Part shown: positions 9,162-45,107 of the stretch, piece after piece
Numbering within the stretch: the first letter of the stretch is position 1
Layout of the letters: each line of letters opens with the position of its first letter
Source of the DNA: Mycobacterium paragordonae
GTDB lineage: Bacteria; Actinomycetota; Actinomycetes; Mycobacteriales; Mycobacteriaceae
NCBI RefSeq assembly: GCF_003614435.1
Contig: NZ_CP025546.1
Coordinates: 6,014,001-6,078,000, forward strand
Length of the DNA: 64,000 bases
Direction of reading: 5' to 3'
Translations under genes and position numbers: made by a program
Notes under the pieces: generated by a model
What the model saw: only the letters and a program-made list of their open reading frames with translations
Told to the model about the DNA's origin: nothing
The model's database searches: none

Positions 9162-9186
9162 TCGTCACCATGTCTACCGTCGTCAT

Positions 9187-14203: not shown

Positions 14204-14212
14204 GCCGCCCGG

Positions 14213-15484: not shown

Positions 15485-15509
15485 GACAGGTCAGACTAGC
15501 CGCAAGCCG

Positions 15510-15917
15510 CTAGAGAATCTTTTCCAGCAGGTCCCTCAGGTCGTGCTGCTGCCCGACGGTGAGGCGGCTAAGGCGCTTGTCGAACTCTTCCGAGAGCAGC
15601 GCCAGCCCCTTGGTGCTGGCCCGGCGCCCCTCCGGAGTGAGCAGCAGGCGATGGCGCCGCAGGTCGGTGGGGTCGATTTCACGGCGCACGAATTTCGCCG
15701 CTTCCAGCCGTTTGAGGTAGAGCGTGACGGTTGCCTTGGGCATGCTCAACGCCGCCGCGAGCTCCGCCGGGTAAGGGTGCTCGTCGATCTCGGCGAGCAG
15801 GAACAGCTCTTTGGACTCCAGCCCAAGCGCACTGATGCGGGGTTCCGCGCACGATATGACCGACAGCAGGACCCGGTAGTTGAGCGACCAGATTTTGGCC
15901 GCGTCGACTGCAGACAT
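15510..15917 (-). CDS. MarR-family transcriptional regulator
   Basis: The 135-residue protein contains a winged helix (PAELAAALSMPKATVTLYLKRLEAAKFVRREIDPTD, about residues 50-85). The LTPEGRRA wing/helix follows and the ends form a helical dimer region. It is divergent from an aldo/keto reductase 82 bp away, and two palindromes lie between them. This suggests self-regulation and ligand-controlled expression of the reductase. No ligand can be assigned. Confidence 0.87.
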   Translation of the reverse strand: MSAVDAAKIWSLNYRVLLSVISCAEPRISALGLESKELFLLAEIDEHPYPAELAAALSMPKATVTLYLKRLEAAKFVRREIDPTDLRRHRLLLTPEGRRASTKGLALLSEEFDKRLSRLTVGQQHDLRDLLEKIL

Positions 15918-15931
15918 CGACTTGCCAGATC

Positions 15932-15961
15932 GTTCAGTCGTGAACTAGTTTATTAATGAAC
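15932..15961. promoter_or_regulatory. Two candidate MarR operators in the MarR / aldo-keto reductase gap
   Basis: Site 1 at 15932-15945 is GTTCA-GTCG-TGAAC, a perfect 5-bp-arm inverted repeat. Site 2 at 15948-15961 is GTTTATTAATGAAC, palindromic except for one pair. Both share the outer GTT..AAC half-sites and lie side by side just upstream of the regulator start. This fits dimer binding by a MarR protein; binding itself is inferred. Confidence 0.5.
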
Positions 15962-15999
15962 AATCGCATAGTCGAACAACTTACCAGAAAGCGGGCGCT

Positions 16000-17085
16000 A
16001 TGCCTCTTGATCAGTACGTGACACTCGGTCGATCGGGATTGCGGGTCAGCCCGTTGTGCCTGGGCGCGATGACCTTCGGTGAAGACCTCGGCTGGGGCAC
16101 CAGCGTCGAAGAGTCCCAACAGATCATCGACCGGTACCTCGAACTCGGCGGCAACTTCATCGACACCGCCAACTTCTACACGCGCAGCCACTCCGAGAAG
16201 ATCATCGGCGATCACATCGGGCGGCATCCGGAACGGCGCGATCGCGTCGTCATCGCCACCAAGTTCAGCGGCAATCTCTACCCGGGCGACCCCAACGGCG
16301 GCGGGTCCGGCCGCAAGTCGGTGATCAAGGCGTGCGAGAACTCGTTGCGGCGCTTGCAGACCGACTACATCGACCTCTACTGGCTGCACATCTGGGATCA
16401 GAACACCCCCATCGAGGAGACCATGGCCGCACTCGACGACCTGGTCCGGGCCGGCAAGGTGCGTTATCTCGGTGTCTCGGACACCCCGGCGTGGAAAATC
16501 GTGGAAGCCAACCTGATTGCCCGCTTCCGCGGCTGGTCCTCGTTCGTCGGCCTGCAGATCGAGTACTCGCTGCTGGAACGCACCGTCGAGCAGGAACTCG
16601 TCCCGATGGCTGCCGAGTTCGGGCTCGGCATCACGCCCTGGTCACCGCTGAAAAGCGGTGTGCTGAGCGGGAAGTACACCCGCACCAACGCCGACCGACA
16701 AGAGTCCGGCCGCGGTGCCATGGTCGACGCGTTCCTCAACGAGGAGACGTACGCCCTGATCGACGAACTCGAGGTCATCGCCCGGGCGCACGACACCGCG
16801 GTTTCCAGCGTTGCGCTGGCCTGGCTGCAGGCGCAGCGGGCGGTGACGTCCATCATCATTGGGGCACGCCGGCTTTCGCAGTTCGACGAGAACGTGCGCG
16901 CGGTGGACGTGAACCTCACGGCCGACGACATAGCGCGGCTGGACGCTCTCACCAGGCCGGCCTTCGGTTTCCCGCAGAGCATGATCGAGATGGCGCCGGG
17001 CATCATCAACGGCGGCACGTCGGTCAATGGCGTGTCGGCGCCGATCTCGGAATACGTGATGCCGGCGGGAGGTCGCCCCTACTGA
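16000..17085 (+). CDS. Aldo/keto reductase
   Basis: 361 residues. The AKR catalytic tetrad can be read: D55 and Y60 in FIDTANFY, K88 in IATKFS, and H130 in LYWLHIWD. The C-terminal NADP-binding pattern VTSIIIGARRLSQFDENV is present. It reduces aldehydes or ketones with NADPH; the substrate is unknown. Expression is probably controlled by the divergent MarR protein. It ends 3 bp before the convergent CMD-like gene. The MarR-AKR pair interrupts the purD-Rv0771 neighbourship known from H37Rv, so it looks inserted. Confidence 0.88.
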   Translation: MPLDQYVTLGRSGLRVSPLCLGAMTFGEDLGWGTSVEESQQIIDRYLELGGNFIDTANFYTRSHSEKIIGDHIGRHPERRDRVVIATKFSGNLYPGDPNGGGSGRKSVIKACENSLRRLQTDYIDLYWLHIWDQNTPIEETMAALDDLVRAGKVRYLGVSDTPAWKIVEANLIARFRGWSSFVGLQIEYSLLERTVEQELVPMAAEFGLGITPWSPLKSGVLSGKYTRTNADRQESGRGAMVDAFLNEETYALIDELEVIARAHDTAVSSVALAWLQAQRAVTSIIIGARRLSQFDENVRAVDVNLTADDIARLDALTRPAFGFPQSMIEMAPGIINGGTSVNGVSAPISEYVMPAGGRPY

Positions 17086-20841: not shown

Positions 20842-21461
20842 GTGATGCTGTGGTTTCGGTAGCCGACCAGGCTCAGCACCCGGTCGGCAGGACTCCGCGG
20901 AACCGCCGCCAGGAGGAAACCTTCCGGAAGGTACTGGCCGCCGGCATGGAGACCATGCGGGAGAACTCCTACGCGGACCTGACCGTCCGGATGGTTGCGG
21001 CCAAGGCGAAAGTGGCGCCGGCGACCGCGTACACGTACTTCTCGTCCAAGAACCACCTGATCGCCGAGGTTTACCTCGATCTGGTGCGGCATGTGCCGTT
21101 CTTCACCGACGTCAACGTCGCGATGCACACCCGGGTGGACCAGGCGTTGCGGCACCTGGCGCTGGTCGTCGCCGACGAACCCGAAGTTGGCGCGGCGTGC
21201 ACGGCCGCGTTGCTGGGCGGCGGCACCGACCCCGCGGTACGCGCCGTGCGCGACCGGATCGGAGCGGAGATCCACCGCCGCATCGCCTCGGCCATCGGGC
21301 CCGGCGCCGAGGCCGGCACCGTCGCGGCGTTGCAAATGGCCTTCTATGGCGCCCTGGTTCAGGCCGGGAGCGGCGAGTTCACTTATCACGAGATTGCCGA
21401 CCGGTTGGCCGACGTGGTGGGCCTCATCCTGACCGGGGCCGAAAAGGGCGGTGATGCATGA
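20835..21461 (+). CDS. TetR-family regulator of the cyp51 region (Rv0767c-like)
   Basis: 208 residues from GTG 20835 (next in-frame GTG 20850). The helix-turn-helix YADLTVRMVAAKAKVAPATAYTYFSSK lies at about residues 45-75, followed by an effector domain. It overlaps cyp123 by 4 bp (ATGA) and so is the first gene of the rightward P450 operon and divergent from aldA. Homologue of Rv0767c by position. It probably represses both arms. The effector is unknown; a sterol-derived or azole-like ligand would fit the neighbours but is speculation. Confidence 0.88.
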   Translation: MSSDAVVSVADQAQHPVGRTPRNRRQEETFRKVLAAGMETMRENSYADLTVRMVAAKAKVAPATAYTYFSSKNHLIAEVYLDLVRHVPFFTDVNVAMHTRVDQALRHLALVVADEPEVGAACTAALLGGGTDPAVRAVRDRIGAEIHRRIASAIGPGAEAGTVAALQMAFYGALVQAGSGEFTYHEIADRLADVVGLILTGAEKGGDA

Positions 21462-22675
21462 CGATTCATGTCGGGGATCCGGAATTGATTCTGGACCCAT
21501 ACGATTACGACTTCCACGAGGACCCGTACCCGTACTACCGGCGGCTGCGTGACGAGGCGCCGCTCTACCACAACGAAGCGCTCGGTTTCTGGGCGGTCTC
21601 GCGGCACAGCGATGTGCACCAGGGTTTTCGCAACAGCACCACACTGTCCAACCGCGACGGAGTCTCGTTGGACCCGGTCTCGCGCGGCCCGCACGCGTCG
21701 AAGACGATGTCGTTCCTGGCCATGGACGACCCGGCGCATCTACGGCTGCGCACCCTGGTATCGAAAGGGTTCACTCCCAGGCGAATTCGCGAACTCGAAC
21801 CCCGGGTCACCGAACTCGCCGTGCAGCACCTCGACGTGATGCTGGAGAAGGCTGCGTCCGGAACCGTCGACTACGTCGCCGAATTCGCCGGCAAGCTCCC
21901 GATGGACGTGATCTCGGAGCTGATGGGCGTGCCGGTGGCTGATCGCGACCGCATCCGCGCCTGGGCCGACGGCGTCATGCACCGCGAAGACGGTGTCACC
22001 GACGTGCCGGCCTCGGCGATCGAAGCGTCGATCAACCTGATCGTCTACTACCAGGGCATGATCGCCGAACGCCGCAAGAAGCTCACCGACGACCTGACGT
22101 CGGCGCTGCTGGAGGCCGAGATCGACGGCGACCGGCTCACCGACGAGGAAGTCCTCGGGTTCATGTTCCTGATGGTGATCGCGGGCAATGAGACCACCAC
22201 CAAACTCCTTGCCAACGCCGCCTTCTGGGGGCACAAGAACCCCGATCAGCTGACGCCGATGTACACCGACCTGTCTCGGATTCCGCTGTGGGTCGAGGAG
22301 ACGCTGCGGTACGACACGTCCAGCCAGATCCTGGCCCGTACCGTGTCCGGTCCGCTGGAGCTCTACGACACCACGCTTTCCGAAGGGGACGTGCTGTTGC
22401 TGTTACCCGGTTCGGCCCACCGCGACGAGCGCGTGTTCGACCAACCCGACGATTTCGTGATCGGCCGCGACATCGGCTCGAAGCTTCTGAGTTTCGGCAG
22501 TGGAGCCCATTTCTGTCTGGGGGCCCACCTGGCCCGGATGGAAGCGCGGGTAGCGCTGACCGAGTTGTTCAAGCGAATCCGCGGATACGAGGTGGACGAG
22601 GCCAACGCCGTCCGCGTCCACTCCAGCAACGTCCGCGGGTTCGCTCACTTACCCGTCACCGTGGAGGTCCGCTGA
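21458..22675 (+). CDS. cyp123: Cytochrome P450 CYP123-type
   Basis: 405 residues. I-helix MVIAGNETTTKLL, K-helix EETLRYD, and heme loop LLSFGSGAHFCLGAHLARME with the ligand cysteine. Sequence and position (TetR-cyp123-SDR-cyp51) identify CYP123, whose substrate is not known. Translational overlaps with the TetR gene upstream and the SDR downstream (ATGA in both) show it is part of one operon. Electrons could come from the ferredoxin encoded at 24872. Confidence 0.92.
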   Translation: MTIHVGDPELILDPYDYDFHEDPYPYYRRLRDEAPLYHNEALGFWAVSRHSDVHQGFRNSTTLSNRDGVSLDPVSRGPHASKTMSFLAMDDPAHLRLRTLVSKGFTPRRIRELEPRVTELAVQHLDVMLEKAASGTVDYVAEFAGKLPMDVISELMGVPVADRDRIRAWADGVMHREDGVTDVPASAIEASINLIVYYQGMIAERRKKLTDDLTSALLEAEIDGDRLTDEEVLGFMFLMVIAGNETTTKLLANAAFWGHKNPDQLTPMYTDLSRIPLWVEETLRYDTSSQILARTVSGPLELYDTTLSEGDVLLLLPGSAHRDERVFDQPDDFVIGRDIGSKLLSFGSGAHFCLGAHLARMEARVALTELFKRIRGYEVDEANAVRVHSSNVRGFAHLPVTVEVR

Positions 22676-23495
22676 TGCCCCGCTTTGAGCCGCATCCCGC
22701 ACGCCGGCCCGCCATCGTCGCGGGCGCGTCGTCGGGTATCGGTGCCGCGACCGCGATTGAGCTTGCGGCTCATGGTTTTCCGGTGGCGCTGGGAGCGCGG
22801 CGGGTGGAGAAGTGCCAGGAACTCGTCGACAAGATCCGCGCAGCGGGCGGCGAAGCGGTGGCACTGCCACTGGACGTCACCGATCCGGCGTCGGTCAAGG
22901 ACTTCGTGCGGCAAGCCACCGAGCAGCTCGGAGACATCGAGGTGCTGGTCGCCGGCGCCGGTGACACGTATTTCGGCAAGCTGCACGAGATCGACAGCGA
23001 GGCTTTCGAATCGCAGCTGCAGATCCACTTGATCGGGGCGAATCGGCTTGCCACGGCCGTGCTTCCGGGGATGCTCGAGCGTCAGCGCGGTGACCTGATC
23101 TTCGTGGGTTCCGACGTCGCATTGCGGCAGCGCCCGCACATGGGCGCCTACGGGGCGGCCAAGGCCGGACTGATCGCGATGGTCACCAACCTGCAGATGG
23201 AGCTGGAGGGCACCGGCGTGCGGGCATCGATCGTCCACCCCGGCCCGACCAAGACGGGAATGGGCTGGAGCCTGCCTGCCGAGTTGATCGGCCCGGCGCT
23301 CGAGGACTGGGCCAAATGGGGCCAGGCGCGGCACGACTACTTCCTGCGGGCTTCCGATCTGGCGCGGGCGATCACCTTCGTCGCCGAGACGCCGCGGGGC
23401 GGGTTCGTGGTCAACATGGAGCTTCAGCCCGAAGCGCCGTTGACGACCACCAAAGAGCGCCAGCAACTGAAAGTCGATGAGAAAGCGCTGAATTC

Positions 23496-23499
<4 letters not shown>
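22675..23499 (+). CDS. Short-chain dehydrogenase/reductase (Rv0765c-like)
   Basis: 274 residues from ATG 22675, which overlaps the cyp123 stop; longer frames upstream are shadows of cyp123. Features: AIVAGASSGIGAATAIEL (cofactor loop), ARR after strand 2 suggesting NADPH, VAGAGDTYFG, catalytic Ser in IFVGSDVALRQ, and Tyr/Lys in YGAAKAG. It overlaps cyp51 by 4 bp. It may reduce or oxidise a product of one of the flanking P450s. Confidence 0.88.
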
Positions 23500-25077
<1,578 letters not shown>

Positions 25078-35442: not shown

Positions 35443-35514
35443 GCCTCCTTAGCTCAGTGGTAGAGCACTCGCCTTGTAAGCGAGCGGTCGTCAGTTCAAT
35501 CCTGACAGGGGGCT
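35443..35514 (+). tRNA. tRNA-Thr (anticodon TGT)
   Basis: 72 nt cloverleaf. Acceptor stem GCCTCCT pairs with AGGGGGC (one G-T pair). The D arm has AGCTCAGTGGTAGAGC. The anticodon arm is CTCGC-CTTGTAA-GCGAG with anticodon TGT. The T arm is CTGACAGG-side pairing around GTTCAATCC. No CCA is encoded. Its 3' part from the anticodon stem onward is the attachment site of the integrated element, and the gene remains intact at the left junction. Confidence 0.96.
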
Positions 35515-35515
35515 C
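35481..35515 (+). other. attL (left attachment core, inside tRNA-Thr)
   Basis: 35-bp core beginning CGAGCGGTCG and ending GGGGCTC, identical to 45073-45107. It covers the tRNA from the 3' side of the anticodon stem to one base past the end, so integration leaves a functional tRNA. Confidence 0.93.
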
Positions 35516-35571
35516 TCTCACCAGCAGGAATGCTGGTCGATGCTCCGTTGGTCTCACATGCTGGACATGAT

Positions 35572-35606
35572 CGACTACTTTCCGACTACTTTCGCCGCCT
35601 ACTTTC
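35572..35606 (+). repeat. Three tandem 11-bp repeats next to attL (candidate integrase arm-type sites)
   Basis: CGACTACTTTC at 35572-35582 and 35583-35593 and CGCCTACTTTC at 35596-35606, overlapping the integrase stop. Tyrosine integrases bind short repeats beside the core. A related CTACTTT occurs near the right end, at the P450 stop (about 44937-44946). A separate perfect palindrome, ACCAGCA-GGAA-TGCTGGT, sits at 35520-35537. Confidence 0.5.
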
Positions 35607-36744
35607 CCTCCATGAACGCGTCCAGCGCCTGCCGCGCGTCGGGGCCGACGGCCTTCTTCTCGATGTAGTGCCCCTCGGTGGTGGCCAGGTGCGCGTGGCC
35701 GAGCTGCTGCTGCGCGGCCTCGACGCCGTGCGCGTCCCGCACCACGGTGCCCGCGGTACGACGAAACGAGTGTGGAGTACACCAGCGCAGATCGTCGGGC
35801 AGTGCGGCTCGCATCGACCGGCGGAGGTTGTTCGCCGAGAGCGGACCGCCGTCGCGATTCTTGAACACAAGTCCAGCCGGTCCAGTGGTGCCGAACAGGT
35901 CGGTCAGCGCCTCCACACCGTGCTTCGGCAGGATCGTGGTCAGTGGTGGGGCTCCGTGCTTGCGGACGTCCTGGCGGTGTGCTGGCCTACCCGGGATGGT
36001 CTGGTGGTCGATGATCGTTCCGTTGATCTTGACGGTTGGCGGGTCGGCCAACAGGTCGACGTCCTCCCAGCGGATCGCCAACACCTCGCCGGGCCGCGCG
36101 CCGGTGGCCATCGCCAGTTCCACGAACGCCGGCAGGTACCGGCCCCGCTGCGGCCCGCGGATCGGCGTGCTGGCGAACTCGGCCACTGCGTCCCTGATCC
36201 GCCGGAACTCTTCGGGAGTTGCGGCGCGCACCACCCGCTTCGATGCTCTGTTCGGCCGCGCTTCCACGATCGGATTCACCGCGATCACGTCGAACCGCAC
36301 AGCGAGTGTGAACATGCCCTTGAGCACGATCCGCAACAACTGCGCCTGCCGCACCGACTCGACGCTCTTCAGGTGCGCATCCGCGCGACTCGTCGAAAAC
36401 TCACGAATCCGCAACGCGCCTAACTTGCCAACGCCGTGGATACGCCACACTTTGCGGTACTGGGCTTCTGACTGAGGCATCAACCGGTCCTCACTGACCT
36501 TGCACGCGATCCATACTTCGAAGAGTTCGGCGAGAGTTGTTTTTTCACTGATGATTTGACCTACCAGCGGCGCCGTCCGCTGCCTCAAATGGCGCTGAAG
36601 AGCGCGGCGCGCATCCTCGCCCGACCGGCCAGTCCTGCGGACTTTGCGACGGGTCCCATCACCATCCCGAACGTAGGTGCGAGCCTCGAAAAGTCCTTTC
36701 TCGCATTCGGTTACAGTGATCCGGCCGTGCTCGCCCGGCTCCAT
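35599..36744 (-). CDS. Tyrosine recombinase / phage integrase
   Basis: 381 residues from ATG 36744 (MEPGEHGRIT), placed 7 bp after the repressor stop; an upstream start at 36777 would overlap the repressor. The N-terminal arm-binding and core-binding domains (1-165) precede the catalytic domain with R217 (ATGARPGEV), H325-x-x-R328 (HSFRR), H350 (LGHAHL) and nucleophile Y360 (GHYIEKK). It lies directly beside attL, as usual for tRNA-targeting elements, and should integrate and, with the excisionase, excise the element. Confidence 0.94.
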   Translation of the reverse strand: MEPGEHGRITVTECEKGLFEARTYVRDGDGTRRKVRRTGRSGEDARRALQRHLRQRTAPLVGQIISEKTTLAELFEVWIACKVSEDRLMPQSEAQYRKVWRIHGVGKLGALRIREFSTSRADAHLKSVESVRQAQLLRIVLKGMFTLAVRFDVIAVNPIVEARPNRASKRVVRAATPEEFRRIRDAVAEFASTPIRGPQRGRYLPAFVELAMATGARPGEVLAIRWEDVDLLADPPTVKINGTIIDHQTIPGRPAHRQDVRKHGAPPLTTILPKHGVEALTDLFGTTGPAGLVFKNRDGGPLSANNLRRSMRAALPDDLRWCTPHSFRRTAGTVVRDAHGVEAAQQQLGHAHLATTEGHYIEKKAVGPDARQALDAFMEGK

Positions 36745-36751
36745 CCGTTGC

Positions 36752-37264
36752 CTAGGCACCCGGCGGCACCTCCTCAAGCATTCTCAATATTAGATCCCGA
36801 TTGGCCTGCAGTGAGGCAAGCATCCCCCGATAGCTCTCGGCGTCTTCCTGTAGCTTCTCGCGCAGCGCGTCCGGTAGGTCGTAGTGCTTCGGTGCTTCAA
36901 TCGCCTGCCGAAGGTTCTCCCACATTGCGGCAATTTGTGCGTTCGTGTCCGCCAGAATCGCTCGCAGGTCATCACGCCGTCCGCTCTCACCTTTTATTGA
37001 AAGCCCATCAGCGGCCTTAATTAGCCACCACGTCCAGTCGGTGTCGAGCGCGACACCTAGTGCAATTAGCTCTGGAACGGCTACCGACTGCTCCCCCCTT
37101 TCAATGCGCGTGATCGCAACGCGATGGATTGGCACACCGATTTTCTCTGCCTCCTCGGCGAGCTTCACAGCAGTCATATTCCGCGCCTTCCGCGCCGCGT
37201 AGATCAGTTCGCCCAGCCTCTGCGCCAACAGAGCCGGCCAGCTGACGTCATCGGTGTCGTCCAT
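36752..37264 (-). CDS. XRE/Cro-CI-type repressor
   Basis: 170 residues from ATG 37264. The helix-turn-helix at about 12-65 reads LGELIYAARKARNMTAVKLAEEA and HRVAITRIERGEQSVAVPELIALGVAL, typical of XRE regulators. A charged helical, possibly coiled-coil C-terminus (about 95-165) probably mediates oligomerisation; no RecA-type self-cleavage (S24) domain is seen, so induction is unlikely to follow the classic LexA-like route. It is divergent from the excisionase and two matching 17-bp palindromes lie between them. Confidence 0.85.
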   Translation of the reverse strand: MDDTDDVSWPALLAQRLGELIYAARKARNMTAVKLAEEAEKIGVPIHRVAITRIERGEQSVAVPELIALGVALDTDWTWWLIKAADGLSIKGESGRRDDLRAILADTNAQIAAMWENLRQAIEAPKHYDLPDALREKLQEDAESYRGMLASLQANRDLILRMLEEVPPGA

Positions 37265-37314
37265 CGCGACATTCTTACACAAAGTTCTGTCGAGTCCGTC
37301 GGCATTCATGCTAG

Positions 37315-37354
37315 TGTCGTTTGATACGACAATGATATGTCGTTGAATACAACA
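37315..37354. promoter_or_regulatory. Lysogeny-switch operators (two 17-bp palindromes)
   Basis: O1 at 37315-37331 is TGTCGT-TTGAT-ACGACA, a perfect inverted repeat. O2 at 37338-37354 is TGTCGT-TGAAT-ACAACA, with one mismatched pair. Centres are 23 bp apart, about two helical turns, on the excisionase side of the divergent gap. This is the layout expected for repressor control of the rightward early genes. Confidence 0.65.
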
Positions 37355-37369
37355 CGCAGAGGAGCGATC

Positions 37370-37561
37370 ATGAACGATTGGGAGGCCACGGCCTCGAAGC
37401 TCGGCAGGGTCGGCCGATCGACAGTCTTCGCGCTATGGGCGTCGGGAGATCTTGCCTCAGTGAAGATCGGCCGCCGCAGATTCTCGACAGATGCCCAGAT
37501 TGCCGACTACATCGAGCGGCTCGAGTCCGAGGCACGCGGCCCCGGCGGAACGGCTGCCTAG
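37370..37561 (+). CDS. Excisionase / small helix-turn-helix DNA-binding protein
   Basis: 63 residues from ATG 37370, with a strong ribosome-binding site (AGAGGAG) upstream; the longer start lies inside O2. Sequence MNDWEATASKLGRVGRST with VFALWASGDLASVKIGRRRF matches MerR-like excisionase/AlpA helix-turn-helix proteins (recognition helix then a short wing). Expected to bend attL DNA and direct excision. First rightward gene, behind the two operators. Confidence 0.82.
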   Translation: MNDWEATASKLGRVGRSTVFALWASGDLASVKIGRRRFSTDAQIADYIERLESEARGPGGTAA

Positions 37562-37725
37562 TGAGCCATCCGCACACAACCCAGGCTGATCGCGATGCGA
37601 TCGAGGATCGCGGTGTGGTCGATGACGACCGGACCGAAATGCTGACGGCCCCCGCAAACCCAGGTGCTGCAACACCGGGCGGGAGCCGCCGGAACCAACC
37701 CCTCACCCGAAAGGAAAGTTCATGA
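37561..37725 (+). CDS. Small element protein, unknown
   Basis: 54 residues, polar and without membrane or metal motifs (starts VSHPHTTQADRDAIEDRG, ends LTRKESS). The GTG shares a base with the excisionase stop (TAGTG) and its stop overlaps the next start (ATGA), so it is embedded in a chain of coupled genes. That junction pattern is the main support for it being real. Confidence 0.5.
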   Translation: MSHPHTTQADRDAIEDRGVVDDDRTEMLTAPANPGAATPGGSRRNQPLTRKESS

Positions 37726-38165
37726 CCACAATAGCCCGTCAACCCGACCCGACTCCACCATCTGGCGCTGAGCCGGACATCTGGGAGAGCGACGGCCGCC
37801 GAGACGTCTACACCTCCGTGGGTTGCGTGCTTGCCCGCCAAGACATCCTGCGGTGCCCTTTGGTCACGACGATCGCCCGCCAGGACCGAGCGGGAGTGGT
37901 CGACCGAATAAGGGTCGCGATCGAGGCCGACGTCGACCTGACCGCTGAGCAGGCTCGGGAGCTGGCCGGCTACCTCATTCGCGCAGCCGGGATCGCGGAC
38001 CGGTGGGCCGGGCAAGCACAAGAGGATCAGATCACCGTCTTATCCGCAGCCAGAGACGCCGTGCTTGCGGCGTACATCGAGCTTCGGGAATTGCCGGGCA
38101 ATGTCGGTGACTATCTGCGTGCCGCGCTGGACAGCATCAGCGACGCCGAGGGGGCAGCACGGTGA
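37722..38165 (+). CDS. Element protein, unknown (147 aa)
   Basis: Has a good ribosome-binding site (GAAAGGAAAG) in front of ATG 37722. The first about 60 residues are polar; the rest is helical and acidic (VDLTAEQARELAGYLIRAAGIADRWAG), reminiscent of small phage accessory proteins. It overlaps the next gene by 4 bp. I do not recognise a family. It belongs to the early region between excisionase and replication gene. Confidence 0.72.
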   Translation: MTTIARQPDPTPPSGAEPDIWESDGRRDVYTSVGCVLARQDILRCPLVTTIARQDRAGVVDRIRVAIEADVDLTAEQARELAGYLIRAAGIADRWAGQAQEDQITVLSAARDAVLAAYIELRELPGNVGDYLRAALDSISDAEGAAR

Positions 38166-38557
38166 GCACAACCCACGGTTGCCGATACGCCTGGTGCACC
38201 AGCGACCGGAATGCCTCCAAAGCTCAACGAATGGAGCATACGAACCAGGGTTGGTACGGCTCTGCTACCGGCGACAGCATCAGCCGTTCAGGAAGCGCTT
38301 ATGGGGAGACGGTTACGTCGGTGGGTGTGGGCCTCCGCTACAACGCTGACGTCGACGCGGGGCCGATTCTGTGGCTGCACATCCATGGTGGACCGGACAA
38401 TGTCGACACTGACGCAGACATGTCGTTACCCGAGGCCGTGCTACTACATCGAGCGATCGGCGATTACCTGCACGCTGCCCTCGTCTGCTGCGACCTCGAT
38501 CCCGATGCTGTCGGTGAGTACTACCACGTGCCGCACGACGGTGGTGGTACCAAGTGA
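38162..38557 (+). CDS. Element protein, unknown (131 aa; DUF6907-like layout)
   Basis: GTG start overlapping the previous stop. The N-terminus has a CRYAWCTSD segment with two cysteines and a histidine nearby. The central VGLRYNADVDAGPILWLHIHGG is followed by ADMSLPEAVLLHRAIGDYLHAAL. The pattern of an antiparallel sheet followed by a 'sets the S-L-x-E-A' helix resembles small actinophage proteins annotated DUF6907, a weak match from memory. No catalytic motif. Confidence 0.65.
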   Translation: MSTTHGCRYAWCTSDRNASKAQRMEHTNQGWYGSATGDSISRSGSAYGETVTSVGVGLRYNADVDAGPILWLHIHGGPDNVDTDADMSLPEAVLLHRAIGDYLHAALVCCDLDPDAVGEYYHVPHDGGGTK

Positions 38558-38901
38558 CCGAAAGCAAGGAGGGTACCGGCCCCCAACGGGCCGGCGCTCC
38601 ACCCTCCCAACAACGTGCCTGGTGGCCGGTACATCAGTTCCTTGAAGCCGTTGTAGCCCTAGCGAACTACGGTCCGATCCCTGCTGCCGGTACTCCGTCA
38701 TGGTGCGCGCTTGCCGACGGTGACCCACGGAAGCTGTTGGCTGTAGCGATCGACGGCGAACACCAAGTTTTGCGGATCGAAACCGCCCAAGAGCAGCGCG
38801 CCGAAGCATCGAAAGCCATTGCAGGATCGGCAGACTGGTCGACCACCGCGCGATCCATCGGCCGCCACCGTGAGGTCTACATACCCCGGAGGTCAGCGTG
38901 A
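38554..38901 (+). CDS. DUF2742-like phage element protein
   Basis: 115 residues. The stretch AWWPVHQFLEAVVALANYG, AGTPSWCALADGDPRKLLAVA, ETAQEQRAEASKAI and ADWSTTAR matches what I remember of DUF2742 proteins in phiRv1 and phiRv2 of M. tuberculosis. Its function is unknown. It overlaps both neighbours by 4 bp and precedes the replication gene. This is the most specific link of the element to the phiRv class. Confidence 0.78.
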   Translation: MTESKEGTGPQRAGAPPSQQRAWWPVHQFLEAVVALANYGPIPAAGTPSWCALADGDPRKLLAVAIDGEHQVLRIETAQEQRAEASKAIAGSADWSTTARSIGRHREVYIPRRSA

Positions 38902-40589
38902 TCGACACCGAGCAGTTCTTCCTTGAATCCGGAAGTGATCAGCTCGCGAAGATCTACCGGTGGGCCAGGGCTCGGTACGCAGCGCCGTGGGCGGTGTTTT
39001 TCGCCGTGCTACTCCGGGTCGCGGCCAGTGTCGGCCCGCACGTCCAGCTCCCCGGCGTCATCGGCGGCCGTGCCAGCCTCAACCTTTTGGTGGCTTTCGT
39101 CAGCGCCTCCGGCGGCGGCAAAGGCATCAGTGACAAGGTCGGGCGTATGGCGTGGCCGGCGTCGATAGTTGAGCTACCCATAGGTAGCGGCGAAGGCATC
39201 GCCGCCGCCTTTAAGCGACCCGACAAGCCCGACGAGGACAACGAACCGATCACCGCGGCGGTCTTCAACATCCCCGAGATCGACACGCTGTCGGGCATCG
39301 CATCCCGCCAAGGCTCCATCCTTCTCGCACAGCTCAAGTCGATGGCGATGGGCGAACAACTCGGCCAATCCAACGCCTCCAAGGCGACCAGCCGGATAGT
39401 GCCTGCCCACTCCTACCGGTGCTGTCTGTCGGTCGGTGCCCAGCCCGGCCACACCGGCGTCATCTTCAACGACACCACCGGCGGAACCCCGCAGCGATTC
39501 CTATGGTCACCGACCACCGACCCAGAGATGCCAGACACCAACTCACCAGATCCCGCACCGCTGGACACGGCACTGCCGCTGTGGAAACCCGCAGAGGACG
39601 GTGCGGTCGAGATCATCTACGGGCCGCCCGAGATCACACAGACGGTGATCGCCGCGCACATCGCCCGCCAGCGCGGGGACGCCGACCCGCTGAACGGGCA
39701 CTGGATGCTGACCCGCTGCAAGGTGGCCGCGCTGCTGGCGATCATGCACCAACGATCGGTGGTCTCCCAGACGGACTGGGAGATGTCGGCGACGGTGATG
39801 GCGGTCTCCGATCAGACCCGTGAGTGGATCGTCAACGAGGCCCTGAAAGCGGATCGAGCAAAGATCCGGGACCGGGCGATGGCGCGTGCCCGTGGTGAAG
39901 AGTTTGTCTCTGATCACAAGCTGCTGCGCGCGAAGTCGGCAGTGATCCGCTGGCTCGGCCGAGACACGGAGCTGGCGGCCAATCAACTCCGCTCAAAGCT
40001 CAAGGCGGATTTGCGGGACCACTTCGGTGCGGCCACTGCAGAGTTGGTCGCCGAGGGGTTGATCGCCGAGATTCATGTCGACCGGGGTGCCCGGTACCGG
40101 CTCAACAAAGAAGTACAGGGTGTACCCCCGGTACAGGGTATATATCCGCAGCTCACAGAGGGTGTACCCCCGGTACAGGGTGTACCTTCGTCGCCGGGCC
40201 CCACCGGTCAGGGTGACCAGTGTGGTCAGGGTCCATTGTTGCAGCTCAGAGAGAGTGACCCGGTCGGTCAGGGTGACCAACTGGAAGATACCGCGCAACC
40301 GAACTTCCGCAGCCCGGATCCTTCTGGGCCTAGTTCTGAAGATCGGCGTTCAAGCGCCCAGATAAGCGAGGAGCCCGTGGCACTAGCCCGTGTAGGAGTT
40401 TGCCAGCGTTGCTACGTCAGCCTGCCAAAGGCCAGTACCGCAGCGTTCTGTGATGACTGCATCGACGCCCCGGAACGCCCGGTGCCGCCGAAGAAGACGA
40501 CGAACGAGTACGCCCTTCGAGTGGTGCACAACGGCACCATCACCGCCGACGATCATCGGGTACCGAGCGAACGAGAGCGGGCCGGATGA
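38898..40589 (+). CDS. P-loop replication protein (DUF3987/primase-helicase-like) with internal repeats
   Basis: 563 residues. The N-terminal half resembles phage/plasmid P-loop replication proteins: Walker A FVSASGGGKGISDK (about 67-80), then VFNIPEIDTLSG with acidic residues possibly forming Walker B, and SVGAQPGHTGVIF. Residues about 300-405 look like a winged helix (IRWLGRDTELAANQLRSKLKADL). Residues about 405-460 are encoded by iteron-like DNA repeats and have low complexity (VPPVQG, GQGDQ). The C-terminus has a four-cysteine zinc knuckle (CQRCYVSLPKASTAAFCDDC). Likely role: helicase/initiator for replication of the excised element. Confidence 0.78.
   Translation: MIDTEQFFLESGSDQLAKIYRWARARYAAPWAVFFAVLLRVAASVGPHVQLPGVIGGRASLNLLVAFVSASGGGKGISDKVGRMAWPASIVELPIGSGEGIAAAFKRPDKPDEDNEPITAAVFNIPEIDTLSGIASRQGSILLAQLKSMAMGEQLGQSNASKATSRIVPAHSYRCCLSVGAQPGHTGVIFNDTTGGTPQRFLWSPTTDPEMPDTNSPDPAPLDTALPLWKPAEDGAVEIIYGPPEITQTVIAAHIARQRGDADPLNGHWMLTRCKVAALLAIMHQRSVVSQTDWEMSATVMAVSDQTREWIVNEALKADRAKIRDRAMARARGEEFVSDHKLLRAKSAVIRWLGRDTELAANQLRSKLKADLRDHFGAATAELVAEGLIAEIHVDRGARYRLNKEVQGVPPVQGIYPQLTEGVPPVQGVPSSPGPTGQGDQCGQGPLLQLRESDPVGQGDQLEDTAQPNFRSPDPSGPSSEDRRSSAQISEEPVALARVGVCQRCYVSLPKASTAAFCDDCIDAPERPVPPKKTTNEYALRVVHNGTITADDHRVPSERERAG
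40113..40279 (+). repeat. Iteron-like repeats inside the replication gene (candidate origin)
   Basis: GTACAGGGT occurs at 40113-40121, 40131-40139 and 40173-40181. A 21-bp unit starting GGTGTACCCCCGG is exact at 40119-40139 and 40161-40181. A second family, CGGTCAGGGTGACCA, is exact at 40205-40219 and 40265-40279. GCAGCTCA(C/G)AGAG joins the units at 40148-40160 and 40241-40253. The two halves look like a diverged tandem duplication of about 75 bp. Several units are themselves palindromic (GGTGTACC, GGTCAGGGTGACC). Confidence 0.8.
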
Positions 40590-41407
40590 CGACCCCGTAC
40601 ACCGTTCTTATCGAGGCCCTCGCCGGTGCCCCGTCACTGCCCGGTGCGCGCTGTCGCGGCCGCCACCACCTATTCGACCCGGCTGATCTCGGTGAGCACG
40701 CCCAGGCCCGCCACGACCAGGCTCTCGGCCTGTGCACGCGGTGCCCGGCGCTGGTGGCGTGTTCGCAATGGTTCAACAGCCTGCCACCTAGACAACGCCC
40801 TGTCGGTGTCGTTGCCGGCCGAATCAACCAATGGGCGGACCGACCATCCAAAGAGAAACCGTCCCTAGAAATGGAGAAAGCCACAATGGCCAACCACCAC
40901 GAGACCGACTACAGCGACTACCGTCGCGCCGCCGTCCTCACCCTGCACCACCGCCGCGGAAACACCCCCGGAGTACTTGCGATCGTCGACGAAACCAACG
41001 CCGAGGACCGAGCGCGAGAGCTGCTGTTCGCCGTCCTCGGGTTCCACCGCCACCTCATCACCCGGCTCCGCTCCGAGGAAGGGCTGATGCTGGTGTCCGA
41101 CTACGTTCACGGCCTGGCTGTGCACGAACCCATCAATCCCGAGGGCATGGACATCCGGCGTGCCGCGCAGATCCTCGAACACCACGGACAGGGCAACCAC
41201 GACGGCATCGGCTTGGAGATGACGGCCGCGACCGCCGAGCAGCGCGCCACTCACGTCTTTCTGCAGCTGCTATGGATCTACGAGACCGCCCTACCTGAGC
41301 TCACCTCGCGGGCAGGCATCGCCTGGATCGAAGCGCAGATCGAGCTGCTGCTGGCCGAGGAGTTCCGGCCAGGCACCGACGGCCAGGGGGGCGGATCAAA
41401 GCCGTGA
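40586..41407 (+). CDS. WhiB-like domain fused to an unknown C-terminal domain
   Basis: 273 residues, overlapping the replication gene by 4 bp. Residues 1-80 have the WhiB cysteine pattern C23, C50-x2-C53-x5-C59 followed by PVGVVAGR, equivalent to the WhiB G-V/I-W-G turn, so an iron-sulfur regulator domain is likely. Residues about 100-273 form a separate helical domain (YSDYRRAAVLTLHHRRGN; MDIRRAAQILEHHG; AQIELLLAEEF) of unknown function. ATG 40886, preceded by GGAGAAAG, could start the C-terminal domain on its own (173 residues). WhiB-like proteins occur in mycobacteriophages, but this fusion is unfamiliar to me. Confidence 0.75.
   Translation: MTTPYTVLIEALAGAPSLPGARCRGRHHLFDPADLGEHAQARHDQALGLCTRCPALVACSQWFNSLPPRQRPVGVVAGRINQWADRPSKEKPSLEMEKATMANHHETDYSDYRRAAVLTLHHRRGNTPGVLAIVDETNAEDRARELLFAVLGFHRHLITRLRSEEGLMLVSDYVHGLAVHEPINPEGMDIRRAAQILEHHGQGNHDGIGLEMTAATAEQRATHVFLQLLWIYETALPELTSRAGIAWIEAQIELLLAEEFRPGTDGQGGGSKP
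40873..40888 (+). promoter_or_regulatory. Strong internal ribosome-binding site and in-frame ATG
   Basis: GGAGAAAG (40873-40880) lies 5 bases before ATG 40886, in frame with the WhiB-like fusion gene. It would yield MANHHETDYSDYRRAAV..., exactly the C-terminal domain. Confidence 0.5.
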
Positions 41408-41610
41408 ACCGCTCCCGCCAGGACACCGCCCCGGTGTCCGAACGTGCACGAGAACAGGTTTCACCGAAAAAATGGGACTTGTCGGCTGGGTCGGGTATGC
41501 TGAACCCAGCTCGGTATCTCCGAAGCGCCGGGAGCCGCAGGGGCGGCCAACCCGGACACGGGTCACCATGCACATTGCGATTTCCGCATGTCCAAGTAGG
41601 TGACCGTTGA
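41404..41610 (+). CDS. Possible small element protein, unknown
   Basis: 68 residues, basic (starts MNRSRQDTAPVSERAREQV). Its GTG overlaps the stop of the WhiB-like gene (GTGA) and its stop overlaps the protease start TTG 41607. Composition is biased and the DNA holds several GC-rich hairpins (about 41500-41570), so this may instead be a structured untranslated region between the early and capsid modules. Confidence 0.35.
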   Translation: MNRSRQDTAPVSERAREQVSPKKWDLSAGSGMLNPARYLRSAGSRRGGQPGHGSPCTLRFPHVQVGDR

Positions 41611-42134
41611 GCAGCATTCTGTTTCGCACCGCGACCCTTGAACCGGGTTCGGGTAGAACCATTTACGGCCGCGTCGTGCCCTATGGCGAGACCATCTCGG
41701 TTGACGACGGCTATGGCGAATACCGGGAGCGGTTCGCGCCAGGCGCTTTCCGGCGTTCCCTGACCGAACGCGGCCACAAAGTGCGGCTGTTCATCGGCCA
41801 CGACACTCGACGGCTGCCCATCGGCAAAGCAACGTCACTGCGCGACGAGGGCGACGGCGTTCACGCAGAGTTCTTGGTGGCTGACACGGCCGCCGGCAAC
41901 GAGGCGCTCGAGCTGGTCCGCTCCGGTGTGGCCGACTCATTCTCAGTTGGCTTCAGGGGCATGCGTGACCATCGGGACAATGGCGTGACGGTGCGCGACG
42001 AGGCCGCACTGCTCGAAGTCAGCTTGGTCGGCGTCGCTGCCTACTCGGGCGCCGAAGTCGCGGGCGTGCGATCGCAGTCTCTTGTCATTCCCCGTTCGAT
42101 AGCCGAAGCCCGGCTGTCGCCTCTTGATTGGTGA
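41607..42134 (+). CDS. HK97-family prohead protease
   Basis: 175 residues from TTG 41607. Family features: GRVVPYGETISVDDGYGEYRERFAPGAF at 21-48, catalytic His 65 in RLFIGHD, and Ser in DSFSVGFRG (S113, or S111) followed by LLEVSLVGVAAY. It trims the scaffolding arm of the capsid protein during head maturation. It stands 6 bp before the capsid gene. An intact protease in an element lacking tail and packaging genes implies the element builds or remodels its own capsid. Confidence 0.92.
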   Translation: MSSILFRTATLEPGSGRTIYGRVVPYGETISVDDGYGEYRERFAPGAFRRSLTERGHKVRLFIGHDTRRLPIGKATSLRDEGDGVHAEFLVADTAAGNEALELVRSGVADSFSVGFRGMRDHRDNGVTVRDEAALLEVSLVGVAAYSGAEVAGVRSQSLVIPRSIAEARLSPLDW

Positions 42135-42140
42135 AACAAT

Positions 42141-43601
42141 ATGACCGAGCTCATTGAGCACATGACCATCGAGCAGACCCGCGCCGCGGCGCAAGAGCTG
42201 CTCGACAGCACCACCGGCGATTTGACCGGCGCTGACGCTGAAAGATTCCAAGCGCTGACCCGGCACGCCGACTCGCTGCGCCAGCGGCAGGAACAGCGCG
42301 ACACCGCAGCGCGGGACATGGTGCGCCGCTTCGCGGCCGGTGACTCCACCCTGGCTCTGGAAGGTGAAGCCGGAATGCGTCGCACTAACGGCAGTCCGTT
42401 GCCCGGCTACGAGCGTCCCCGCGCGGGCGATGAGGACCACCCGGTCATTAATCGGGAACGTGATGCCGCGATGCGCGTGCTGGACCGCTCGATAAAGGAC
42501 GGCACGATGGTCGCCCGCGGCGCCGAAGCCATCGAGCGGCTGCTGACCACTGGTGCGCCACAAGCCCGTTCGTGGGCTGCCCGGTGGGCGGCCGCGACCG
42601 GCTCCGAGCACTACCTGCGGGCGTTCGCCAAGAAGGTCGCCAACCCCGAGATGGGGCATACGCTGTTCACCGGCTCCGAGGCCGAGGCGTGGCGCACCGC
42701 AGCGCAAGTCCAGGCTGAGCGGGCGATGTCGCTGACCGACACCGCAGGTGGGTTCCTCGCACCGGCTCAGCTCGATCCAGCAATCCTGTTGTCCAGCGAC
42801 GGCTCGGCGAATCCGCTGCGCCAGATGGCGCGGGTTGTGCAAACCGTGTCCGACGTTCACCACTTCGTGTCGTCTGAGGGGGTCGACGCGCACTGGTACG
42901 CCGAAGCGGCGGAGGTCTCCGACGACTCACCTGCACTCGAACAGCCCGCCGTCCCGAACTACCGGGGCAGCGCGTGGGTGCCGTTCAGCATCGAGCTGGA
43001 AGGCGACGGAATCGGGTTCGTCAGCGAAATCGGCCGGCTGCTCATGGATTCGGTTGAACAGCTCACCGCGGCGGCCTACGTCAACGGCAGCGGAACCGGC
43101 CAACCCACAGGGTTTATCCCCGCGCTGACAGGCGTCCCGACATGGGCGGTCAATGGAGCCGGAAGTGAAACGGTTGCAGCCGCTGACCCATTCGCCCTGC
43201 AATCAGCGCTACCTGCGCGCTTCCAGGCGAATTCGGCGTTCGCGGCGAACTTGACCACAACGAATGTTTTGCGCCAGGCGGAGACGAGCGCCGGAGCGCT
43301 CAAGTTTCCGTCGCTGCAGGACAAGCCGCCGATGCTGTGCGGGCGGCCGATCTTCGAGGTTAGCCACATGGCGAGCGTCAACGCGGCGGTGACCGACACC
43401 GTGTACCCACTGGTGCTGGGCGATTGGAGCCAGATGGTTATCTCGGATCGGATCGGATCCACCATCGAGCTGGTGCAAACCGTGTTCGGAGCCAACAGGC
43501 GACCGACCGGACAGCGCGGCTTTTTCGCCTGGTTCCGCACCGGCTCGGACGTTCTGGTCAACAACGCCTTCCGCGTGTTGAAGGTGACCACGACCGCCTA
43601 A
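42141..43601 (+). CDS. HK97-type major capsid protein
   Basis: 486 residues. An N-terminal helical delta-domain (1-about 150) is rich in charged residues and should be removed by the protease. The mature HK97 fold follows, with AGGFLAPAQLDPAILLSSDG, WVPFSIELEGDGIGFVSEIGRLLMDSVEQLTAAAYVNGSGTGQPTGF and LVLGDWSQMVISDRIGSTIELV. It forms the icosahedral shell. The length and architecture look complete. No portal or scaffold gene accompanies it. Confidence 0.94.
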   Translation: MTELIEHMTIEQTRAAAQELLDSTTGDLTGADAERFQALTRHADSLRQRQEQRDTAARDMVRRFAAGDSTLALEGEAGMRRTNGSPLPGYERPRAGDEDHPVINRERDAAMRVLDRSIKDGTMVARGAEAIERLLTTGAPQARSWAARWAAATGSEHYLRAFAKKVANPEMGHTLFTGSEAEAWRTAAQVQAERAMSLTDTAGGFLAPAQLDPAILLSSDGSANPLRQMARVVQTVSDVHHFVSSEGVDAHWYAEAAEVSDDSPALEQPAVPNYRGSAWVPFSIELEGDGIGFVSEIGRLLMDSVEQLTAAAYVNGSGTGQPTGFIPALTGVPTWAVNGAGSETVAAADPFALQSALPARFQANSAFAANLTTTNVLRQAETSAGALKFPSLQDKPPMLCGRPIFEVSHMASVNAAVTDTVYPLVLGDWSQMVISDRIGSTIELVQTVFGANRRPTGQRGFFAWFRTGSDVLVNNAFRVLKVTTTA

Positions 43602-43716
43602 TCCGACTGGTCCTTGCGGCCCATTGCAGTCGGGAAGGTGGTTGTGTCCATGCCTCCAGACGGCAGAAAGCGCAGGTTAGATGGATTATGCTGCGCTGCA
43701 ATCACTTCGAGGAGAC

Positions 43717-43770
43717 CCGGGGGTGGGTGGGGCATCGCAAACGCGGTACCCCCACCGACCGCCCCCCCAG
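43717..43770 (+). other. G/C-tract hairpin between capsid and P450 genes
   Basis: A G-rich run (about 43719-43732, GGGGGTGGGTGGGG) is followed after 16 bases by a C-rich run (about 43749-43768). The arms can pair to form a very stable hairpin, and the G run alone has quadruplex potential. It may end the capsid transcript or affect the P450 leader. The rest of 43602-43845 shows no coding signal I trust. Confidence 0.4.
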
Positions 43771-43845
43771 TTCGGCGCGTCACTGCACGACCGGCGCACT
43801 TTTTTCCCTCGCGAAATCGGCCATGTACCAACAGGATTCGCTCAC

Positions 43846-44946
43846 ATGACATCAGCGAATCACGTTGTACAACAGCAACTTTCACCGGCCTACCACGAGT
43901 TGTTCCCAGTCGACCGAGGGGCGGCGTTTGCCATGCGGCGCGACCTCGGCCCGGTCGGGATGGTTGGCGACGGGGTGTACTGCTTGACCCGCCGGCCAGA
44001 CATGCTGGCGGTACTGCGGAATCCGTGGATGTTCCCCCCGGCGGGAACCTCGCCGGTCACGGGATTGCCGATCACCAAAGATCAGCATGACCTGTTCGTG
44101 CGACTGCTTGACACCGCCGCAACCGCGTCGATGTTGCCGTCGCTGCGGCAGCGGGCCGCGGACATCATCGACGGCGTGGCCGCGCGCGCAGGCTGTGACG
44201 GGATCAGTGAGGTGGCCTGGCCATTCGTATTGGCCGTGTTCTGGGACATGTGCGGATTGCGCCACGCAGACGCCCGTATCGACACCGATCCGCTCGAGCT
44301 GCATTTGCGCGCAGGATTGATCGCTACGCGGCGGCACGACCCCGGCGCGGACGTCATCTCTCAGATCACCCAGGAGGCTCCACACCTTCCCGACGAGGAA
44401 ATCCAATCGATGGTGGTGTCGGGTATCTGGCCCTCGATCGTCTTCCTGATGACACCCATCGGGGCTGCACTCTTGGAGCTGGCACGGCGTCCCGAGCTAC
44501 GCGACCGGCTGCGCGCCAACCCCCAGGACCAACTGGTCTTCGTCAACGAGGTGCTCCGCCTGGAAGGTGGCGGGGTGGCCGGACGGCGGACTGCGGAGCC
44601 GGTCACCGTGGCGGGCGTGCCGATCCCGGCCGGCGCAACCCTGCTCCTGGAGATGGGCTACATCAACCGGGACGACTCCGACGAGATGTCGACCAACGAA
44701 CTGCGGATGGACGGCCGACACTGCCACTACTCCTTCGGAGTCGGGCCGCGCCGCTGCCCAGCGGGCTACTTCGTCCGCAGTCTGTTGGTCGCATTCATCG
44801 AGGAATGGCTTTCCCGCATTCCGGTGTTCGACGTCGAGCCGGGTTACGTTCCCCGGCTGCATTACCCGGACCGATGCCTCGGGTCAGCGGACCTGAGGCA
44901 GGTTCTCCGCGAACTCCCGCTGCGCTGGACACCGGGGCTACTTTAG
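43846..44946 (+). CDS. Cytochrome P450 carried as cargo in the element
   Basis: 366 residues from ATG 43846; longer upstream frames read through the hairpin and look non-coding. The heme loop HYSFGVGPRRCPAGYF with C304 and the helix-K ExxR (E235, R238) are present. The I-helix, however, reads VVSGIWPSIVF (190-200) in place of the usual A-G-x-E/D-T, so the oxygen-activating acid/Thr pair is missing. It may be a peroxygenase, an isomerase-like P450 or a non-classical enzyme. It lies between the capsid gene and attR, the usual cargo position. No redox partner is encoded in the element. Confidence 0.86.
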   Translation: MTSANHVVQQQLSPAYHELFPVDRGAAFAMRRDLGPVGMVGDGVYCLTRRPDMLAVLRNPWMFPPAGTSPVTGLPITKDQHDLFVRLLDTAATASMLPSLRQRAADIIDGVAARAGCDGISEVAWPFVLAVFWDMCGLRHADARIDTDPLELHLRAGLIATRRHDPGADVISQITQEAPHLPDEEIQSMVVSGIWPSIVFLMTPIGAALLELARRPELRDRLRANPQDQLVFVNEVLRLEGGGVAGRRTAEPVTVAGVPIPAGATLLLEMGYINRDDSDEMSTNELRMDGRHCHYSFGVGPRRCPAGYFVRSLLVAFIEEWLSRIPVFDVEPGYVPRLHYPDRCLGSADLRQVLRELPLRWTPGLL

Positions 44947-45072
44947 GGATACAAACCTCCGCGACACGCCGCATACCGTCATGGCCTGTCGCGGACTGCA
45001 GCTAAACCTTGCATCCCCGTTTGTTGGATTTAACAGGACTACAGCAAACTTTACTAAGAGATAACCCGCTGC

Positions 45073-45107
45073 CGAGCGGTCGTCAGTTCAATCCTGACAG
45101 GGGGCTC
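45073..45107 (+). other. attR (right attachment core)
   Basis: Exact copy of the 35-bp core at 35481-35515, carrying only the 3' part of tRNA-Thr. An A/T-richer stretch (about 45020-45065) precedes it inside the element, as expected for integrase/host-factor binding. It lies 88 bp upstream of the cyclase gene. Confidence 0.93.

What the first reader, a model, noticed from the sequence alone, without database searches (positions are those of the whole stretch)
35481..45107. A 9.6-kb capsid-encoding phage satellite of the phiRv1/phiRv2 class in tRNA-Thr
Seen: exact 35-bp att repeats, tyrosine integrase beside attL, repressor/excisionase switch, replication gene, prohead protease and major capsid protein, with every rightward gene intact and mostly overlapping by 4 bp. 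Not seen: portal, terminase, tail, lysis. Known: phiRv elements and capsid-forming PICIs encode heads but borrow other parts. Inference: this is a live or recently live satellite that packages itself in its own small heads using helper packaging and tail functions.
Basis: partly seen in the sequence, partly recalled or inferred. Interest (0 to 1): 0.8.

Follow-up and report, generated by a model that had tools for sequence, protein, structure and literature searches.

The report
Phage satellite carrying altered cytochrome P450
A 9.6-kb mobile element in a mycobacterium makes its own virus shell protein but lacks the rest of a virus, and near the shell gene it carries a reshaped cytochrome P450 gene whose relatives lie near shell genes in similar elements of two other mycobacteria.

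Summary
Two exact 35-bp repeats (35481-35515, 45073-45107), the left one being the 3' end of tRNA-Thr, bound a 9,627-bp element with integrase, repressor, excisionase-like gene, replication protein, prohead protease and HK97 capsid. No portal, terminase or tail family matched among 11 genes or 51 further ORFs. The element is absent from this site in a relative with 89% identical flanks. This is a satellite of the published phiRv/candidate-PICI kind; packaging by a helper remains inference.

The same protease-capsid-P450 block (97% identical) sits in a second element at tRNA-Val in the same genome. A 56%-identical P450 lies 1 kb after a different capsid in a serine-recombinase element of M. asiaticum; a more distant CYP143-like P450 follows a related capsid in a tRNA-Met element of M. 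kyorinense. The first three keep the heme cysteine and ExxR but lose the I-helix (A/G)GxDT motif and parts of the C-helix and F-G region, yet evolve under purifying selection (dN/dS 0.14 and 0.41). I read it as a P450-fold protein retained for something other than ordinary monooxygenation. The satellite is known; the cargo is new.

The parts
35443..35515 (+). tRNA-Thr(TGT), integration site; its 3' end is att left
   Evidence: ARAGORN, Rfam RF00005 68.5 bits
35481..35515 (+). attL core, 35-bp direct repeat
   Evidence: the repeat finder D8
35599..36777 (-). tyrosine integrase, 392 aa
   Evidence: PF00589 5.1e-14, phrog_1 2.4e-48; 53% identical to the integrase of Mycobacterium phage Tortellini
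36752..37309 (-). HTH_3 repressor, 185 aa
   Evidence: PF01381 2.1e-7
37337..37561 (+). excisionase-like HTH protein, 74 aa
   Evidence: weak: PF12728 0.018, TIGR01764 0.024
37722..38165 (+). unknown, 147 aa
   Evidence: no family; 33% identical ORFs in L075 and L076
38162..38557 (+). unknown, 131 aa
   Evidence: no family; 45% identical ORF at the right end of the second element L003
38554..38901 (+). DUF2742 protein, 115 aa
   Evidence: PF10888 8.8e-33
38898..40589 (+). replication protein (phage DNA primase/polymerase type), 563 aa
   Evidence: phrog_28894 1.7e-53; no Pfam family; 77% identical homologue in a third element of the same genome
40586..41407 (+). WhiB-like N part plus unknown C part (separate gene in most relatives)
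   Evidence: phrog_9926 4.7e-5; P0026 and most other hits are 155-190 aa and cover 52-65% of the query
41401..44928 (+). exchange block shared at 97% nt identity with a second element in the genome: protease + capsid + P450
   Evidence: blastn to L003 7830-11357, identity profile
41607..42134 (+). S78 prohead protease, 175 aa
   Evidence: PF04586 9.5e-18
42141..43601 (+). HK97-type major capsid protein, 486 aa
   Evidence: PF05065 1.6e-40, TIGR01554 7e-41
43846..44946 (+). P450-fold protein related to CYP143, 366 aa; heme Cys and ExxR kept, I-helix (A/G)GxDT lost
45073..45107 (+). attR core, 35-bp direct repeat
   Evidence: the repeat finder D8

Best explanation
An integrated phage satellite of the phiRv/candidate-PICI kind. 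Shown by sequence: it is bounded by attL/attR at tRNA-Thr; it carries genes for integration, repression, replication, one capsid protein and one protease; no portal, terminase or tail gene was found; the last gene before attR encodes a P450-fold protein. Inferred: on induction the integrase and excisionase-like protein cut it out, the replication protein copies it, its own capsid and protease build a small head, and a helper phage supplies portal, terminase and tail. Inferred: the P450 is retained satellite cargo, moved with or near the capsid genes between satellites. In the window/tRNA-Val/M. asiaticum lineage it has lost the residues that P450 monooxygenases use to deliver protons to oxygen but keeps the heme-ligand cysteine, so it more likely acts as a heme-binding factor or a non-monooxygenase heme enzyme (peroxygenase or isomerase type) in the lysogen than as an ordinary hydroxylase. 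A plausible target, untested, is the CYP143 pathway of the host.
For: att repeats and tRNA; gene families; no packaging or tail genes; absent from the site in G006; 97% shared block with a second element in tRNA-Val; P450 984 bp after a capsid without BLASTP similarity to the window's in an M. asiaticum element and 202 bp after a related capsid in M. kyorinense, inside a 10-kb element with 49-bp repeats; window lineage found in 2 of 396 genomes at E<=1e-80, all 3 copies in such elements; (A/G)GxDT absent in 4 of 4 window/L003/P0002/P0003 sequences and present in 34 of 34 chromosomal relatives; the ExxR and heme-Cys columns are invariant over 20 aligned sequences; dN/dS 0.14 between own copies, 0.41 to M. 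asiaticum.
Against: A P450 follows the capsid in only 2 of 39 annotated related loci (L003, L059), two of which 39 end within 0.8 kb of the capsid (L061, L092), so it is not a core satellite gene. G045 has a capsid 93% identical to that of M. asiaticum and no P450. No excision, particle or helper evidence; the only portal and large terminase found in the genome lie in an interrupted prophage remnant. Heme binding is read from sequence only; the model has low confidence next to the Cys (residues 297-303, pLDDT under 50; Cys is 304).
Confidence: 0.68

Rival explanations
1. The element is a satellite, but the P450 is passive or decaying cargo: a host CYP143-like gene picked up by accident that has lost catalytic motifs because nothing selects for it.
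For: Loss of the I-helix motif and of C-helix and F-G segments; long branches in the tree; P450 present in few satellites (2 of 39 annotated loci).
Against: Open frames in all three genomic copies although the M. asiaticum copy is only 56% identical; dN/dS 0.14 and 0.41; the two sub-lineages share the C-helix deletion, most of the F-G deletion and a Phe at the place of the I-helix Thr, which a neutral wreck would hardly keep.
Confidence: 0.2
2. The element is a decayed prophage that lost portal, terminase, tail and lysis genes and is now stuck, its capsid a relic.
For: No packaging, tail or lysis genes; an interrupted prophage remnant exists in the same genome (L142).
Against: Exact att repeats, intact integrase frame, compact operon with 4-bp overlaps, MCP dN/dS 0.19 between two elements of the genome, and relatives near many different tRNA genes (19 of 30 capsid-family loci scanned hold a tRNA gene). 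The set integrase/excisionase/primase/protease/capsid is described for phiBN42_1 (PMC3986857, passages read).
Confidence: 0.12
3. The capsid does not package DNA but forms an encapsulin-like compartment loaded with the neighbouring P450-fold protein.
For: P450 is the next gene after the capsid in three elements (window, L003, L059) and 1 kb after it in a fourth, and moves with it as one 3.5-kb block.
Against: A prohead protease and a replication and integration module fit a DNA-carrying head; 37 of 39 annotated relatives of the capsid show no P450 (downstream cut short in two); in M. asiaticum the capsid is of another lineage; no cargo-docking tail was tested.
Confidence: 0.04

Closest known systems
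phiRv1/phiRv2 and other Mycobacterium candidate PICIs (PMC10654092, mSystems 2023; passages read)
   Same: Integrase plus major capsid protein; tyrosine integrases at tRNA genes or serine integrases elsewhere; prevalent in slow growers.
   Different: The main text of that paper holds 'P450' 0 times; a P450 cargo is not described there.
phiBN42_1 (PMC3986857; passages read)
   Same: Five genes with assigned function: integrase, excisionase, DNA primase, prohead protease, capsid.
   Different: The paper's main text holds 'P450' 0 times.
CYP143 (Rv1785c, PDB 8amo, 8ckn, 8amq)
   Same: Best sequence and fold match of the window P450 and best solved sequence match of the M. kyorinense one.
   Different: CYP143 is chromosomal, in the ESX-5 locus beside ferredoxin FdxE (PMC6469627, passages read); the window lineage lost the I-helix and C-helix motifs and about 20 residues of the F-G region.
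P450 genes in viruses: giant viruses and Mycobacterium phage Adler (stated in PMC9405906, passages read)
   Same: A P450 in a phage-like genome; redox partner genes not found there either.
   Different: Those are in full viruses; the window protein has no match at E<=1e-3 in 50,697 phage records.
cyp110 on the nifD excision element of Anabaena 7120 (PMC1079853; search listing and start of abstract only)
   Same: A P450 gene on an 11-kb excisable bacterial element of unknown function.
   Different: Cyanobacterial; I did not compare the elements or the proteins.
Capsid-forming PICIs (recalled)
   Same: Satellite with its own capsid genes.
   Different: As recalled, they also encode portal and terminase; none was found here.

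Membership tests
[quoted passage not shown]
[quoted passage not shown]
   PF05065 1.6e-40
Phage satellite in the functional sense | Lacks genes for a full virion | tested here: met
   no portal, terminase or tail family in 11 genes or 51 other ORFs
Phage satellite in the functional sense | Induced, packaged and moved by a helper phage | not testable with these tools
   needs infection experiments
Capsid-forming PICI | Own portal and terminase (recalled definition) | tested here: not met
Cytochrome P450 superfamily | P450 fold | tested here: met
Cytochrome P450 superfamily | Heme-ligand Cys loop and ExxR | tested here: met
   Cys-loop pattern in 5 of 5 element sequences; E235, R238 and C304 invariant over 20 aligned sequences. 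The ExxR pattern is too loose to count.
Cytochrome P450 monooxygenase | I-helix (A/G)GxDT | tested here: not met
   0 of 4 sequences of the window lineage; present in M. kyorinense and in 34 of 34 chromosomal relatives
Encapsulin with P450 cargo | Capsid protein that encloses the neighbour protein | not tested
   no assay or docking test run

The most novel reading that the evidence does not exclude
Phage satellites of mycobacteria have domesticated a CYP143-derived P450-fold protein. In one lineage it has shed the monooxygenase motif while keeping the heme-ligand cysteine, and serves the satellite or its lysogen, for example by interfering with or sensing the CYP143/ESX-5-linked envelope pathway. 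It has travelled between satellites with different integrases and different capsids.
Probability: 0.4. Interest if true: 0.8.

Novelty: new variant of a known kind. Interest (0 to 1): 0.58.

Why it matters
Phage satellites are known (as I recall) for carrying toxin, defence and capsid-interference genes. A heme protein of the P450 fold as recurrent cargo near the capsid gene would point to satellites acting on host lipid or envelope chemistry. It would also give a natural set of P450s in which the proton-delivery motif was lost under selection. The nearest characterised enzyme, CYP143, is an orphan in the ESX-5 locus, so a satellite protein built on it could help make its role testable.

Tried and rejected
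Hidden packaging genes in small or antisense ORFs: 0 of 51. P450 in known phages: no match for P0001 or for the M. kyorinense P450 at E<=1e-3. A chromosomal P450 as control found one phage record at 2e-8, so the search can see P450s, but it did not return phage Adler, which PMC9405906 names; absence in that collection is weak evidence. Plasmids: one 37% P450 on an M. branderi plasmid. IMG/VR: one contig (L097), identical to the M. asiaticum element; two other scans gave nothing. Common origin of the M. kyorinense P450 with the window lineage: one clade not rejected (AU p 0.505), nor shown; long branches. The first tree held the window P450 twice, once under a chromosomal label. Anti-phage models: none for the P450. 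Sigma-70-like promoters: none found, uninformative. A resident helper: no PF04860 portal in the genome, but L142 holds a large terminase, an SPP1-type portal (PF05133 6.5e-38) and a capsid, followed by a transposase; I take it for a remnant and did not search for tail genes. Capsid without sequence kinship in M. asiaticum: both capsids fall in PF05065 but BLASTP finds nothing (E 1.4), so they are distant lines of one fold family. The far boundary of the M. asiaticum element in the comM-like gene was not found. Downstream ORFs of related loci: 87 scanned, 50 Pfam families, the commonest in 2 members, p450 in 1 (L059; the window lineage misses the threshold), and some of these ORFs are host genes; so no general cargo class emerged.

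Papers: searches; no title or abstract start listed reports a P450 in a phage satellite. In one search, 60 papers held two of the three terms and the ten listed held 'P450' 0 times; the other 50 were not seen. Original papers on viral P450s and on capsid-forming PICIs were not read (recalled).
Full report
What was checked. The window lies at C1:6014001-6078000 of a 7.22-Mb mycobacterial genome. The 35-bp repeats at 35481-35515 and 45073-45107 are identical, and the first is the 3' end of tRNA-Thr(TGT). Between them I count eleven genes. Two run left: the integrase and an HTH repressor. Nine run right: an excisionase-like protein, three small proteins (one DUF2742), a phage primase/polymerase-type protein, a WhiB-like fusion, an S78 protease, an HK97 capsid and a P450. 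Four junctions overlap by 4 bp. The 51 other ORFs of 60 aa or more lying wholly between the repeats gave no match in PHROGs or Pfam at E<=1e-3.

Mobility. Of 61 genomes compared with the region, G006 has both flanks at 89% identity. The left alignment ends at the end of the tRNA (window 35515), and the right one resumes at window 45113, six bases after attR. Between them G006 has 1.17 kb with a PE-family gene (PF00934 2e-32) and no element. The same genome as the window holds a second element (L003) at tRNA-Val, with another integrase and another replication protein. By DNA the two share only 41401-44928, at 97%; by protein also a WhiB-like part (34%) and the 131-aa protein (45%). A third element, at tRNA-Ala, shares the replication protein (77% aa) and the WhiB-like gene (75%) and has no capsid. 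So satellites in one cell share modules.

Relatives. The capsid has relatives in 47 of 396 Mycobacterium genomes at E<=1e-20. Of the 54 places listed besides the window itself I annotated 39, L003 and L056-L093, the better-scoring ones with few exceptions. Of 30 of these scanned, 19 hold a tRNA gene in the stretch (Val, Arg, Pro, Leu, Ala or Met). Six carry an ORF over 1,100 aa after the capsid (L065, L067-L070, L072). Three of these six were scanned and two matched a phage minor tail family, so some of these loci are probably full prophages. The nearest phage capsids are about 45% identical over 69% of the query. Elements of this kind are in print as phiRv-like candidate PICIs (PMC10654092, PMC3986857; passages read).

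Recurrence. That element has a serine recombinase and lies in a comM-like gene (Resolvase 2e-31, Mg_chelatase 3e-84). IMG/VR holds 9,775 bp of it, identical, as a viral contig. In M. kyorinense (P0022, contig 26,895 bp = G094:C8) a 367-aa P450 starts 202 bp after a capsid of the window's family inside a 10-kb element at tRNA-Met with 49-bp repeats. Its best solved match is also CYP143, at 4e-53 against 9e-22 for the next family. A P450 HMM over 97 loci and the window and over 46 later loci found no other P450 in a capsid-bearing locus. A profile of the window lineage finds only 2 of 396 genomes at E<=1e-80. The M. asiaticum capsid type occurs in 30 of 396 genomes; G045, with a 93% identical one, has other sequence in the slot, so the P450 sits in a swappable cargo position there.

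What the protein has lost and kept. Compared with 34 chromosomal relatives, the four sequences of the window lineage (window, L003, P0002, P0003) lack (A/G)GxDT in the I-helix (0 of 4 against 34 of 34) and a C-helix EHxRxR pattern (0 of 4 against 28 of 34); the Cys-loop pattern is in all. In the 20-row alignment the ExxR and Cys columns are invariant, and the window and M. asiaticum proteins share the deletion before and in the C-helix, most of the deletion in the F-G region (8 residues longer in the window's) and a Phe where the catalytic Thr would be. The M. kyorinense protein keeps the I-helix, C-helix and Cys-loop patterns. Nei-Gojobori dN/dS is 0.14 between the two own copies (dS 0.198) and 0.41 against M. 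asiaticum (dS 0.90); both indicate constraint. P0002 (5 member sequences, 2 contigs) looks like a mosaic of the two own copies, which suggests recombination between satellites. In the exchange block dS rises from 0 (protease) through 0.044 (capsid) to 0.198 (P450).

How it probably works. Shown: boundaries, gene content, absence from a relative and sharing of modules. Inferred: excision, replication, own heads, helper portal, terminase and tail. For the P450, heme binding is inferred from the conserved cysteine and ExxR. Ordinary monooxygenation is unlikely in the window lineage because the acid-alcohol pair is gone (established P450 knowledge, recalled). Peroxygenase or isomerase chemistry, heme sensing, or interference with CYP143 or its ferredoxin are open. 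CYP143 is an orphan enzyme of the ESX-5 locus with partner FdxE (PMC6469627, passages read).

Chance. In one search, 99 of 198 genomes had 1 to 5 P450s matching at 1e-30, element copies included. For about 80 cargo ORFs drawn at random from genomes of several thousand genes, well under one such gene would be expected; this is a rough estimate, not a computed test. A single origin of all element P450s is not excluded, so the number of captures may be one.

Against.

Noticed in passing
L159 (G000:C1:6000-24000), 5560-16875: Third satellite-like element of the same genome at tRNA-Ala, with the window's replication protein (77% aa) and WhiB-like gene (75%), no capsid, and a 641-aa leftward ORF at 13802-15727 whose C part matches dCTP deaminase/dUTPase (2e-30).
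   Followed up: partly
L143 (G000:C1:2973000-2989000): Another element with a capsid (283 aa) of a different type and an integrase (PF00589) ending beside tRNA-Leu.
   Followed up: partly
L142 (G000:C1:1828000-1844000), 3865-10131: Prophage remnant: TerL, SPP1-type portal and a 284-aa capsid, followed by a transposase.
   Followed up: partly
window 3899-5470 (-), 21455-22672 (+), 23481-24851 (+): Three further P450 frames on the chromosome outside the element.
   Followed up: no
L160 (G006:C1:6105000-6108600), 1053-2063 (-): The relative G006 has a PE-family gene between tRNA-Thr and the cyclase/AAA gene where the window has the satellite.
   Followed up: partly
L077 and L078 (G105:C1, capsids at 138276 and 2044331): One genome holds two elements whose capsids score identically (63% to the window's).
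   Followed up: no
L025 13004-14182 (-): Beside the M. asiaticum P450 lies a trypsin-like peptidase that matches defence-system protease models (RT-Protease_XI 1.9e-13).
   Followed up: no
L132 9624-10346 (-): In G045 a WhiB-like stretch is followed in frame by a small terminase (PF05119 2.6e-21), so some satellites may carry their own packaging specificity.
   Followed up: partly
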